The notes below the pieces were generated by a model, which was given only the letters and a program-made list of their open reading frames with translations, was not told where the DNA came from and searched no databases. The position numbers were made by a program, and so were the translations under genes. From Rhizobium sp. Q54 (GTDB taxonomy: Bacteria; Pseudomonadota; Alphaproteobacteria; UBA828), in assembly GCA_945892755.1 (NCBI GenBank), contig CAMDDO010000008.1, positions 1 to 60,936 of the forward strand: DNA of 60,936 nt, written 5' to 3'. Every line of letters begins with the position of its first letter. The first letter of the stretch is position 1. Shown here one piece after another: positions 2,977 to 33,042 of the stretch.

Positions 2977-3011
2977 GGTCGGCATGGACGGTGGCCGGCA
3001 ATATAGCATTT

Positions 3012-3518
3012 ATGGCCGGAAAACACCGAAAGGCCCTGAGCGAGGCCTATTCTTCGACCTATAAGGTGCGGCATTTGGCCGAGGCCGGTGTCGATCAAGC
3101 CTTTCCGCTGGTCCGCGAAATCGCCGGCTCGCTCAGTCTTGCCGATTGGCGTCGTCATGCGGCCATGCTGATTTGGACCGGGCGGGAACGCCCGCCTGAT
3201 TCCGGCATCGTCGTCGTGCAGCGACACAACTCAAACTATATTCGCGGCCTCTGTGCCTATCGGCTCTGCCCCGATCTGGCGGTGAGCTTTCGGCTGATCG
3301 TCGGCTGTTTCGCGGTGCCCGAGGCGGTTGACTGTGCTTCTGTCGCGCGTGCGCTGATCGCCGCCTGCGGTTCGATCGCCGAGGCCCATGATTGCCGCGC
3401 CGTACAAGTACTTCTGGTAGAACCGAATTCTTGGGTCGCGCCATTGCTGCACAAGGCTGGCTATTGCGTCGATCAGGGCTCTTTCGTGCGCCTTCTGCTG
3501 AGCCACGGATCCCCCTAG
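3012..3518 (+). CDS. GNAT-like hypothetical protein
   Basis: Protein of 168 residues from ATG 3012 (MAGKHRKALSEAY); an in-frame GTG at 2991 would add seven residues. The order of segments is that of a degenerate GNAT acyltransferase fold: an N-terminal helix pair, GIVVVQR and YIRGLCAYR strands, a hydrophobic FRLIVGCFAV strand, then a helix (SVARALIAACGSIAEAH), a VQVLLVE strand and a terminal HKAGY segment typical of the last GNAT helix and strand. The acetyl-CoA loop (Q/R-x-x-G-x-G/A) is not clear, so catalysis is uncertain. It is divergent from the FNR-type regulator and may be under its control. Function unknown. Confidence 0.6.
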   Translation: MAGKHRKALSEAYSSTYKVRHLAEAGVDQAFPLVREIAGSLSLADWRRHAAMLIWTGRERPPDSGIVVVQRHNSNYIRGLCAYRLCPDLAVSFRLIVGCFAVPEAVDCASVARALIAACGSIAEAHDCRAVQVLLVEPNSWVAPLLHKAGYCVDQGSFVRLLLSHGSP

Positions 3519-3670
3519 CGCTCCGGCCAGGTATCCGTCGATTGAGCTAGCGCAATGCCAGGCCCGGTTTGATCCCCTATTTAGATAGTAGGCGAACGGC
3601 ATCCGCCAATTCCGATTGGGGGCCGGGCGCGACAACCCGAATGACGGACAACACGAGGGGAGAACTCATC

Positions 3671-4237
3671 ATGGCTCCGCGCGGCCTGACTCCCTGGTTC
3701 GGCCGCTCTTTAGCGGCGCCGCGCCGCTGGCCGGAGAACCCGTTCGATTTGCTTCACCGCGACGTCGATTGCTTGCTCGGCGATTTCATGAGCGGCGTCG
3801 ATCTTTCACCTTGGACAGGCGGCGAGCGTCACGGATCGCTGATCCCCAAGATGGACGTGGCTGAGAGCGAGAACGCCTATGAGGTTACCGCTGATCTGCC
3901 CGGCGTCGATGAAAAGGACGTCGATGTCTCGATTACCGAGGGTGTGCTGCACATCAGGGGCGAGCGCAGCTTCGGCCGCTTCGAGCGGGCGATCGCGCTG
4001 CCCGACGATGTCGATTCGGACAAGATCGCAGCGAGTTTCAAGCAGGGCGTGCTGCGCCTGAACCTGCCGAAGTCCACCAAAGCCAAGGAAACCGCCAAGA
4101 AAATCGAGGTCAAGGCCGCCCGACGGACCGGAACGACGGCCGGGAAAAAAGACCGCAAAATAGCTCTAGCCGCCATGAATCCGCCGTATTTGGCCCTAAA
4201 TATCGCATTGTCTCCCTTCGGTTCTCCCCCAAGGTGA
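3671..4237 (+). CDS. Hsp20/alpha-crystallin small heat-shock protein with internal deletion
   Basis: ATP-independent holdase chaperone of 188 residues. ATG 3671 is chosen because GAGGGGAG sits just upstream; a longer in-frame start at 3569 lacks this. The alpha-crystallin domain begins at about residue 57 ([40 protein letters not shown]), jumps directly to [13 protein letters not shown], and ends with [12 protein letters not shown] and KKIEVK. The roughly 16 residues usually found between RGE and RSFG (the loop with strand beta-6, used for strand-swapped dimers) are absent. The last 40 or so residues after KIEVKAA do not look like an Hsp20 tail and may be read-through into former non-coding sequence. 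A strong terminator follows at once. Confidence 0.88.
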
Positions 4238-4246
4238 CGTACCTCG

Positions 4247-4276
4247 CCCGGCGGTCTTTGACCGCCGGGTTTTTTT
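4247..4276 (+). terminator. Rho-independent terminator after hsp20
   Basis: Nine-base perfect stem (CCCGGCGGT / ACCGCCGGG) with loop CTTTG, followed by seven T. It isolates hsp20 from the cox operon. The remaining 200 or so bases before coxS show only the GGAGG ribosome-binding site at 4471; I see no other feature. Confidence 0.9.
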
Positions 4277-4479
4277 CGCGCGCTTCCGGAGCGCGCTCGC
4301 CACGCCTCCTGAGACGACCCGCCGATGGAGGGTCCTTCTCGTGGCGCTCTTTTTTTTCCGGTTTTGCCTTTGCGGCGTTAACGCTATCCTCGCGCCCAAT
4401 CAGAACAAGCCGCCGGCAAAATGCCGATCGGGTCCACCGCCGTGCCAGCGGCGAATCCATCCTGGCCAAGGGAGGTAGT

Positions 4480-30280: not shown

Positions 30281-33042
30281 GACGCCCCCTCGTGTGCCTT
30301 TATCGCGGCGCGCAGACGATGCGGCAGCGCGGGCACGCGCGTCAGGCGCGCCCCGGTCGCGTGACGAATGGCCGAAAGGATCGCCGGCGCGGTCGGCACC
30401 AGGCCCGGCTCGCCGACGCCCTTGGCGCCGAACGGCCCGAGCGGCGTCGGATCTTCAATCAATATCACCTCGATCGCCGGCATGTCACCGATGGTCGGGA
30501 TCAGATAGTCGTGCAGATTGTCGGTCCGGCCCGGGTGATATTCTTCCATCAGCGCGAGCCCGAGCCCCTGTGCGATGCCGCCGGTGATCTGGCCTTCGAT
30601 CAACGTCGGATTGATCGCGCGACCGACATCGTGCGCGGCAATCATGCGCCTGACTTTGACCGTGCCGAGCTCGAGATCAACCTCGACCACCGCCATCTGC
30701 GCCGCGAACGCATAGGTCGCGTAGGGCACGCCCTGGCCATTGGTGTCGAGTGGCACAATCGGCGGATCGAAGCGGCCCTCGGCGCGCAGGACGACACCAT
30801 CCAAATGGGGCAAGTCGGTGAGCTCGATCCGATGCGTCGCTGGACCGTCAATGACAATCAAGGCGTCACCGTCGATGCGGAGGCTTGATTCCATCGACGC
30901 ATTGGCGAGCCGAAGCATCTTGGCACGCAAAGCCACCGCCGCCTCCAACGCGGCGCGACCCGACACGAAGGTCTGACGCGAGGCCGAGGTCTTGCCCGCA
31001 TCGGCGGTCAGATCCGTGTCGCCTACGATCGCGCAAATCGAACCGACCGGCAGGCCAAGCGCATCGGCGACGATTTGCGTCAAGATGGTCGTCGAGCCCT
31101 GGCCGATATCGACCGCGCCATTCCGGAACAACACCGTGCCGTCGCGCCGTAGTTCAAGCCTCATGACCGAGGGGTTGGCCATGCCGGTATTGCCGATGCC
31201 ATACCAGCTGCATCCCAGGCCAACGCCCTGGCGTATCATCCCGCGCCGTGCGTTATGTCTCGCCGCGTCATCGAGCGCCGCCTGCCAACGGATTTCAAGC
31301 GCGTCCAGACAGGCGACAAGACCGACGCTCGCTTCAAGGCGTTGTCCGGAAGCCGTGATGTCGCCGGTGCGGAGCGCGTTGAGCCTGCGGAATGCCAGTC
31401 GATCCATGCCGAGCTTGAGCGCGAGATCGTCCATCAGCGTTTCATGGGCGATTGCCGCTTGTGGCACACCGAAGCCGCGAAATGCGCCGCAATTTGGCCC
31501 ATTGGTCAGCACCGCGCGAGCCCGTGTCGCGACATTCGGCACGCGATAGGGACCCATGGCATGAACCGGCACACGACCCGCGACGGTCGGGCCCCAGGAG
31601 GCATAGGGCCCGGTATTGAAGTCCGCCTCGATCGCAACGGCGCTCAGGCGCCCCTCCGCATCGCAAGCGATACGCGCGTCGATGCGGGCTGCGTGACGCT
31701 TGGTGGTCGAGACCATGCTTTCGGGACGCGAATAGACGCAGGCGACCGGGCGGCCGGTCAGCCAGGCACCCAGCGCGATCAGAGGCTGCACCGAGAGATC
31801 GAGCTTGCCGCCAAAGCCTCCGCCGCAGGCACTTGGAACAATGCGCACCTGCACAGGCGAGAGACCCACGACACCCGCCGTCTCGTCGCGATCCATATAG
31901 GGCGTTTGGGTCGAGACGAAGATTTCGATGCGCTCGCCAACACGTCGCGCCCAGCCGGCCTCAGGCTCGATATAGGCGTGCTCGACATAGGCGGTCTCGA
32001 AACGGCCGTGCGCGGTCAAAGCCCCAGCCTCAAACGCCTCAGCGGGATGACCGCGCCGCACCCGGCCCTCGATGAGAATATTGTCCGTCTTGCCCGCTTG
32101 GACTTCGGGCGCGTCATGCGCGAGCGCCTCGTCGAGCGTCAGGACCGGCGTCAGCGGCTGATAGGTGATCGGCACGTCATCATCGCGCAGCGCCTCAATC
32201 GCATCGCGCGCACCAATCAACGCCAGCACCGCCTCGCCGCGAAAGCGCGCAATGCCATCGGCGAGGACCGGCTGATCTTTGATCTCGGGATAGATGCCAA
32301 AACCATTGCGCGGCACGTCGGCGGCACGGAGTGCGCGCACCAGGCCCGGATAACGGTGAAACAATGGGGTGAGATCACCGATCGCAAACCGCGCATGGGG
32401 CCAGGACGACCGGAGTACGCGGAGATGGAGCGCATCGACCGGAATAGCATCAGCCCCATAAATCTCGGTGCCATTCAGCTTGGCCGCGCCATCGAGCCGC
32501 GCGATGCGCGCACCGACAGCGCTGCCGATGCGCAGCGCCGCCTCGCCGATCGCCGCGCCCGCACGTGTCGCCTCAAGCACCGCCGCGATGATCGGTTGAT
32601 AGCCAGTGCACCGGCAGAGCACGCCGCCGAGCGCGTCCTTGACTGCGTCCTCGCCTGGATGCGGGTCGCGGCCCAGCAGGTCAGCTGCCGCCATGAGCAT
32701 CCCGGGCGTGCAGATGCCACACTGTGCCGCGCCCAATCGAAGGAAGGCCGCGCGCAACGGCTCAAAGCGCGGATCGGCGGCCAGTCCCTCAATCGTGATG
32801 ACACGCCTTCCTTCGACTTGCCCAACCGCGATCAAGCACGAGCAGACCTGCGCGCCATCGACCAATACGGTGCAGGCGCCGCAATCGCCGGCATTGCAGC
32901 CGAGCTTGGTGCCGGTCAGACCGAGGTCAATCCGAAGCAGGTCGCTTAGACGACGCGATCGTGACCCCTCCAGCGCGACTGGCCGGCCATTGACCTCGCA
33001 GGTCAAGGTGAAAGGCTTGATTGCAGGTGCCGCATGGCTCAT
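30277..33042 (-). CDS. Molybdenum hydroxylase, fused [2Fe-2S] and Mo subunits (nicotinate dehydrogenase-like)
   Basis: Protein of 921 residues of the xanthine oxidase family in which the small Fe-S subunit and the large Mo subunit are one chain. N-terminal [2Fe-2S] motifs GCNAGDCGAC, CSC, QCGICTPG and CRCTG cover about 1-160. A linker then leads into an aldehyde-oxidase hammerhead (about 185-300) and Mo-binding region with GGGFGGKLD and AFRGFGVPQ. GVGEPG near the C-terminus carries the probable catalytic glutamate. It likely hydroxylates an N-heterocycle with water, for example nicotinate to 6-hydroxynicotinate. It overlaps hnr and the FAD-subunit gene by ATGA at both ends. Confidence 0.85.
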   Translation of the reverse strand: MSHAAPAIKPFTLTCEVNGRPVALEGSRSRRLSDLLRIDLGLTGTKLGCNAGDCGACTVLVDGAQVCSCLIAVGQVEGRRVITIEGLAADPRFEPLRAAFLRLGAAQCGICTPGMLMAAADLLGRDPHPGEDAVKDALGGVLCRCTGYQPIIAAVLEATRAGAAIGEAALRIGSAVGARIARLDGAAKLNGTEIYGADAIPVDALHLRVLRSSWPHARFAIGDLTPLFHRYPGLVRALRAADVPRNGFGIYPEIKDQPVLADGIARFRGEAVLALIGARDAIEALRDDDVPITYQPLTPVLTLDEALAHDAPEVQAGKTDNILIEGRVRRGHPAEAFEAGALTAHGRFETAYVEHAYIEPEAGWARRVGERIEIFVSTQTPYMDRDETAGVVGLSPVQVRIVPSACGGGFGGKLDLSVQPLIALGAWLTGRPVACVYSRPESMVSTTKRHAARIDARIACDAEGRLSAVAIEADFNTGPYASWGPTVAGRVPVHAMGPYRVPNVATRARAVLTNGPNCGAFRGFGVPQAAIAHETLMDDLALKLGMDRLAFRRLNALRTGDITASGQRLEASVGLVACLDALEIRWQAALDDAARHNARRGMIRQGVGLGCSWYGIGNTGMANPSVMRLELRRDGTVLFRNGAVDIGQGSTTILTQIVADALGLPVGSICAIVGDTDLTADAGKTSASRQTFVSGRAALEAAVALRAKMLRLANASMESSLRIDGDALIVIDGPATHRIELTDLPHLDGVVLRAEGRFDPPIVPLDTNGQGVPYATYAFAAQMAVVEVDLELGTVKVRRMIAAHDVGRAINPTLIEGQITGGIAQGLGLALMEEYHPGRTDNLHDYLIPTIGDMPAIEVILIEDPTPLGPFGAKGVGEPGLVPTAPAILSAIRHATGARLTRVPALPHRLRAAIKAHEGAS

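What the first reader, a model, noticed from the sequence alone, without database searches (positions are those of the whole stretch)
3671..4237. Hsp20 lacking the beta-6 dimerisation loop, with a read-through tail
The strand ending in RGE is joined directly to RSFGRFE; about 16 residues that carry beta-6 in bacterial Hsp20 are missing. The stop seems lost too, adding about 40 atypical residues. Such a protein could not make the usual strand-swapped dimer, and may be a monomeric or metazoan-like form, or a decaying gene.
Basis: partly seen in the sequence, partly recalled or inferred. Interest (0 to 1): 0.5.

Follow-up and report, generated by a model that had tools for sequence, protein, structure and literature searches.

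The report
Hsp20 that lost its dimer arm
A small heat-shock chaperone gene of an alphaproteobacterium has recently lost, by a clean slip between two short DNA repeats, the loop that its bacterial relatives use to pair up, and has also lost its stop codon; it is probably a spare gene starting to be lost, though what remains of the protein should still fold.

Summary
The Hsp20 ORF (3671-4237) lacks exactly 16 residues (48 bp) between beta-5 and beta-7, and its last 38 residues are read from DNA that lies beyond the stop in a relative. The syntenic same-genus orthologue (G002) has the full 21-residue loop and TGA where the window has CGA; all 23 homologues aligned keep a loop and end within about three residues of that point. 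In G002 an 8-bp direct repeat brackets exactly the missing 48 bp; 1 of 23 homologues has such a repeat: slippage. Loop-deleted profile searches of 385 class and 398 phylum genomes (overlapping) gave no second example in the listed rows. AlphaFold2 predicts an intact sandwich with a tight beta5-beta7 hairpin and no beta-6. The remaining 5-residue connection is shorter than the animal loop (13-14), so 'metazoan-like' is wrong; closest in length are archaeal Hsp20.1 (PDB 4rzk) and CS domains. The domain shows no accelerated decay. Most likely a recent lesion in an accessory third Hsp20 gene, making a chaperone unable to donate its swap strand. Whether it still works is open.

The parts
3656..3663 (+). 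Shine-Dalgarno-like purine stretch upstream of the start codon
   Evidence: read; inference
3671..4237 (+). hsp20 ORF, 188 aa, bacterial class B type (P-G doublet), loop deleted, stop lost
   Evidence: PF00011, 67.3 bits against cut-off 20.8
3740..3790 (+). N-terminal region with predicted helix (residues 24-40)
3848..4072 (+). alpha-crystallin domain without beta-6 (beta-2 60-65, beta-3 69-75, beta-4 84-89, beta-5 92-99, beta-7 102-109, beta-8 120-124, beta-9 127-134)
   Evidence: AlphaFold2 model, block pLDDT about 90-95 over most of the domain; strand names assigned by me
3961..3968 (+). deletion junction: single copy of CGAGCGCA where G002 has two copies 48 bp apart
4103..4111 (+). C-terminal I-x-V motif (IEV), kept
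4121..4123 (+). CGA at the position of the orthologue's TGA stop (stop loss)
4121..4234 (+). read-through tail, 38 codons, low-confidence in the model (block pLDDT about 48-65)
4165..4254 (+). stretch 82% identical to DNA that lies downstream of the hsp20 stop in G002; C-rich, just before a terminator
4246..4277 (+). intrinsic terminator (11-pair stem, then T run)

Best explanation
An accessory, third hsp20 gene suffered two recent changes. (1) Replication slippage or repeat-mediated deletion between two 8-bp repeats (CGAGCGCA) removed 48 bp in frame, which is exactly the beta5-beta7 loop carrying beta-6. (2) The stop codon became CGA, so translation would run 38 codons into former 3' untranslated DNA and stop just before the terminator. 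The protein should still fold as a compact alpha-crystallin sandwich, with beta-5 and beta-7 as a tight hairpin, and it keeps the C-terminal IxV anchor. It has no strand to donate to a partner, so the usual reciprocal strand-swapped dimer cannot form; it is expected to be monomeric or weakly associating. Because the cell has two other full-loop Hsp20 genes and this type is patchy in the family, the most likely fate is loss: an early stage of decay rather than a selected new form. Shown: both differences from the relatives, the repeat in G002, the intact relatives, the patchiness. Computed: the fold. Inferred: slippage, oligomeric state, expression, fate.
For: Same-genus syntenic orthologue with full loop and TGA. 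23 of 23 homologues have the loop and end near the same point. 8-bp repeat exactly at the deletion ends; at spacing 48 the next longest run in the G002 gene is 4 bp; 1 of 23 homologues has a repeat of 7 or more there. No other loop-free case in the listed rows of a 385-genome class search and a 398-genome phylum search. Two other Hsp20 genes in the same genome, both loop-bearing. With the window protein as query 3 of 20 other family genomes match, against PF00011 in 20 of 21 family genomes, own included. Fold model against the long beta5/beta7 arm of the orthologue.
Against: The domain is not decaying otherwise: its branch (0.171) is shorter than that of the intact orthologue (0.257), it departs at 1 of 22 conserved columns, and of 27 differing sites 12 favour each lineage with 3 ties. 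dN/dS in the two ACD halves is about 0.25-0.3. The deletion kept the frame. All this fits a still-working protein as well as a very recent lesion. No reads were available to exclude an assembly or consensus error. AlphaFold2 with homologues in the alignment is a weak test of stability.
Confidence: 0.62

Rival explanations
1. A functional beta-6-less small Hsp: the loop loss is tolerated or favoured, giving a monomeric or loosely dimeric, permanently active holdase, as proposed for other beta-6-less forms.
For: Predicted intact sandwich; conserved residues and IxV kept, no acceleration; near-colinear with archaeal Hsp20.1 4rzk (Z 12.2, rmsd 2.2, 82 aligned; 82 against 84 residues); Arabidopsis Hsp21 lacks beta-6 and is thought to monomerise on heating and substrate binding (PMC8140096 passages); a review says the S. 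solfataricus Hsp20.1 dimer protects substrate (PMC9133787 passages).
Against: Found in one genome only; a second lesion (stop loss) is in the same gene; accessory gene with two intact paralogues.
Confidence: 0.27
2. A capping or regulatory subunit: the loop-free chain cannot donate beta-6 but keeps the beta-2 edge that accepts one, so it could half-pair with a full-loop Hsp20 and limit oligomer growth.
For: The acceptor side (beta-2, beta-3) is predicted intact and two full-loop Hsp20s exist in the cell. Inference only.
Against: The two other Hsp20s are of the other class (A-G instead of P-G) and need not pair with it; no data on hetero-pairing; the tail may hinder it.
Confidence: 0.06
3. Assembly or consensus error in one draft genome.
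For: Draft of 117 contigs; no second assembly of the species was seen; reads not available.
Against: A collapse between repeats of only 8 bp, 48 bp apart, is not a usual assembly error (general knowledge), and it would have to coincide with an independent error at the stop.
Confidence: 0.05

Closest known systems
Bacterial class B Hsp20 orthologue of the same genus (G002:C32; VGET01000032.1)
   Same: Same gene order around it, ACD and IxV motif
   Different: Has the 21-residue beta5-beta7 loop and stops at KAD-TGA
Sulfolobus solfataricus Hsp20.1 ACD (PDB 4rzk) and NCBIfam NF041800 archaeal Hsp20
   Same: Naturally almost without the loop: 2 more residues than the window over the same span; NF041800 aligns 89 window residues to 88 positions, whereas the orthologue needs 101 for 84
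   Different: Archaeal, a family rather than one recent deletion; the window scores 70.4 bits against the NF041800 cut-off of 140. That Hsp20.1 forms an unusual dimer without beta-6 is recalled from the abstract of Liu 2015 (BBRC 458:429); here I saw only its title in a reference list and sentences on it in a review
CS / p23-type domain (SGT1 CS, PDB 2xcm, 2jki)
   Same: Colinear sandwich without an inserted loop (2xcm_C: Z 11.3, rmsd 2.5, 84 aligned; 86 against 86 residues)
   Different: Pfam CS 13.0 bits against cut-off 21.3; SGT1 CS binds Hsp90 (entry title)
ArsA_HSP20 domain (PF17886)
   Same: Hsp20-like domain with little or no loop: the window aligns 63 residues to 60 positions (34.7 bits), the orthologue 79 to 60
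   Different: Described from ArsA; four of four loop-bearing relatives tested also pass this model (27-34 bits)
Arabidopsis Hsp21
   Same: Described as lacking beta-6 and not swapping strands (PMC8140096 passages)
   Different: Still has a beta5-beta7 loop that makes the dimer contact

Membership tests
Hsp20 / alpha-crystallin family (PF00011) | Score over Pfam's cut-off | tested here: met
   67.3 bits against 20.8
Canonical bacterial class B small Hsp | Long beta5-beta7 loop with beta-6 for the strand-swapped dimer | tested here: not met
   16 residues missing; 5-residue connection
Canonical bacterial class B small Hsp | P-G doublet and C-terminal I/V-x-I/V | tested here: met
   P77-G78 and IEV at 145-147
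Canonical bacterial class B small Hsp | Dimer-based oligomer and holdase activity | not testable with these tools
   needs protein work
Metazoan-type small Hsp | beta5-beta7 loop of about 13-14 residues | tested here: not met
   5 residues by the same way of counting (passages; my count); alphaB-crystallin 2y22 is 10 residues longer over the aligned span
Archaeal Hsp20 (NF041800) | Score over NCBIfam's cut-off | tested here: not met
   70.4 bits against 140
CS / p23 domain (PF04969) | Score over Pfam's cut-off | tested here: not met
   13.0 bits against 21.3
ArsA_HSP20 (PF17886) | Score over Pfam's cut-off | tested here: met
   34.7 bits against 22.5, but four of four loop-bearing relatives also pass, so this does not discriminate
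Pseudogene | Frameshift or premature stop | tested here: not met
   ORF open from 3671 to 4237; one in-frame deletion and a stop loss only
Pseudogene | Relaxed constraint since the split from the orthologue | tested here: inconclusive
   No acceleration on the branch; a very recent lesion would look the same

The most novel reading that the evidence does not exclude
A single slippage event turned a bacterial strand-swapping Hsp20 into a viable beta-6-less holdase with the domain length of a CS/p23 domain, working as a monomer or as a half-paired capping subunit of the cell's other Hsp20s: one-step evolution of a different quaternary structure, with an intact sister gene in the same genus.
Probability: 0.2. 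Interest if true: 0.6.

Novelty: new variant of a known kind. Interest (0 to 1): 0.3.

Why it matters
The window gene and its same-genus orthologue form a natural pair that differ in exactly the dimerisation loop, so the role of beta-6 in a bacterial Hsp20 could be tested on natural sequences. The case also shows how the E-R dipeptides at both ends of the loop can make a DNA repeat (when the first pair is coded GAGCGC) that lets the whole loop be lost in one in-frame step. If the protein is merely on its way out, this is ordinary gene decay.

Tried and rejected
Metazoan-like form: rejected on loop length. A family of loop-free Hsp20s in relatives: the loop-deleted profile A2 found none in the listed rows. 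One phylum row (G505, profile 25-87) looked insert-free, but its sequence has the loop; G452 had the shortest insert (9) and is a divergent protein. Both tables were cut ('more matches are not listed'), so loop-free but divergent proteins could rank below the cut; rows that match only one half of the profile cannot tell loop length and were left out of my counts.

Tail as an old coding extension: rejected as the poorer reading, because the matching DNA in G002 lies beyond the stop and has a different number of C in the C-run. A known RNA family in the tail: cmscan with relaxed limits gave only sub-threshold hits (best 26.4 bits against 229 on the minus strand; plus-strand hits 13.8-18.2 against 41-50), and none reached the gathering score in the whole window. 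The pattern match in G003 is not in the same context: it lies over the start of another gene.

Papers: seen as search listings and as passages (PMC9133787; PMC2850924; PMC8155344; PMC8140096). None was read whole. I saw no paper on a bacterial Hsp20 with a deleted loop in those searches, but most subscription papers are not held.

A dimer prediction was not possible with the tools. The CRP-like, 2Fe-2S subunit and CO-dehydrogenase/xanthine-dehydrogenase labels of neighbours are recalled from their sequences; no family search was run on them.

Full report
Observation. The ORF at 3671-4237 encodes 188 aa and is an Hsp20 (PF00011, 67.3 bits). In the genome search 86 residues cover 101 profile positions, 15 short; among the 40 Hsp20 matches listed for 21 family genomes no other falls short by more than 5 (my arithmetic).

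Same-genus comparison. Genome G002 (its contig C32 has the length, 19,968, and the gene of VGET01000032.1, a MAG titled Alphaproteobacteria bacterium isolate K_Offshore_80m_m2_187) has the gene in the same neighbourhood: a CRP-like regulator (71% identical), a small ORF (51%), hsp20, and a 2Fe-2S small subunit of a CO-dehydrogenase/xanthine-dehydrogenase-like enzyme (90%) (neighbour names recalled from sequence). Its Hsp20 has 16 more residues at the junction and no tail. All 23 homologues in alignment A3 have a loop and end 0-3 residues beyond the last residue before the window's tail region.

Mechanism of the deletion. In G002 the missing 48 bp are bracketed by CGAGCGCA; the window has one copy. 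At spacing 48 this is the longest run in the G002 gene, the next being 4 bp; over all spacings of 30-90 the gene has 4 repeats of 8 bp or more. Of 23 homologues, 1 (G002) has a repeat of 7 bp or more at the loop ends. Slippage or repeat-mediated deletion follows by inference. The stop loss is TGA to CGA by codon-wise reading of the two 3' ends.

How rare. A profile of 15 ACDs with the loop removed (A2) was searched in 385 class genomes and 398 phylum genomes (overlapping samples). Of 31 full-span rows listed in the class search, the window has insert 0 and the other 30 have 12-17. Of 35 other full-span rows in the phylum search, inserts are 9-17. The tables were cut, and the window itself is in the profile, so this shows rarity, not absence.

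Fold. AlphaFold2 on A3 gives mean pLDDT 72.3, but about 90-95 over most of the ACD: beta-5 92-99, beta-7 102-109, a tight hairpin and no beta-6. For the orthologue beta-5 and beta-7 extend into a long arm (91-106, 109-124). In the VIA-align rows the chain spans for the model's span are: Xylella 5j7n 98 for 82; human alphaB 2y22 86 for 76; Hsp20.1 4rzk 84 for 82; SGT1 CS 2xcm 86 for 86. So the remaining domain has the length of beta-6-less relatives, not of the animal proteins. Counting the loop so that crystallins have 14 and the plant-type peak is 21 (PMC2850924; the boundaries are my reconstruction), G002 has 21 and the window 5.

Constraint. On an ACD tree (loop columns left out) the window branch is 0.171 against 0.257 for G002; the window departs at 1 of 22 columns conserved in at least 80% of the 22 other proteins, G002 at 2; of 27 sites that differ, 12 favour each and 3 tie. 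Nei-Gojobori style counts give dN 0.16-0.17 and dS 0.55-0.67 in the two ACD halves. So either the lesion is recent or the protein is still kept; these data do not tell which.

Dispensability. The genome has two more Hsp20 genes, with loops and the A-G doublet of class A (class rule from PMC2850924). With the window protein as query, 3 of 20 other family genomes (G002, G012, G019) match at E 1e-3 or better, while 20 of 21 family genomes have some PF00011 match: this type is accessory.

Tail. Its 38 codons are read from DNA whose last part (4165-4254) is 82% identical to DNA downstream of the G002 stop; the stretch leads into a terminator. It looks like a conserved non-coding element, perhaps a small RNA, seen in 2 of 21 family genomes, both of this genus.

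What it works like and what it is. It is a member of the Hsp20 family by score, but not of the canonical bacterial strand-swapping form, since the defining loop was tested and is absent. It resembles beta-6-less archaeal Hsp20 and CS domains in domain length only; it scores below the cut-offs of NF041800 and CS.

Verdict. Observation right; 'metazoan-like' wrong; 'decaying gene' likely but only just begun; a working beta-6-less form cannot be excluded.

Noticed in passing
4165-4277: Conserved (82% with G002) C-rich stretch GTCTCCCTTCGGTTCTCCCCC followed by a strong terminator, between hsp20 and the 2Fe-2S subunit gene; sub-threshold similarity to several sRNA families. Possible genus-specific small RNA overlapped by the read-through tail.
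   Followed up: partly
2991-3518: Small ORF upstream of hsp20, syntenic in G002 (51% identical), with only a sub-threshold GNAT match (13.1 bits).
   Followed up: partly
32871-32922: 52-bp stretch 81% identical to part of the G002 2Fe-2S small subunit gene: probably a second such subunit in the window.
   Followed up: no
L077 (G452:C45:82000-82800): Divergent Hsp20-like protein with a short, different beta5-beta7 connection and a long C-terminal extension, in another genome of the phylum.
   Followed up: no
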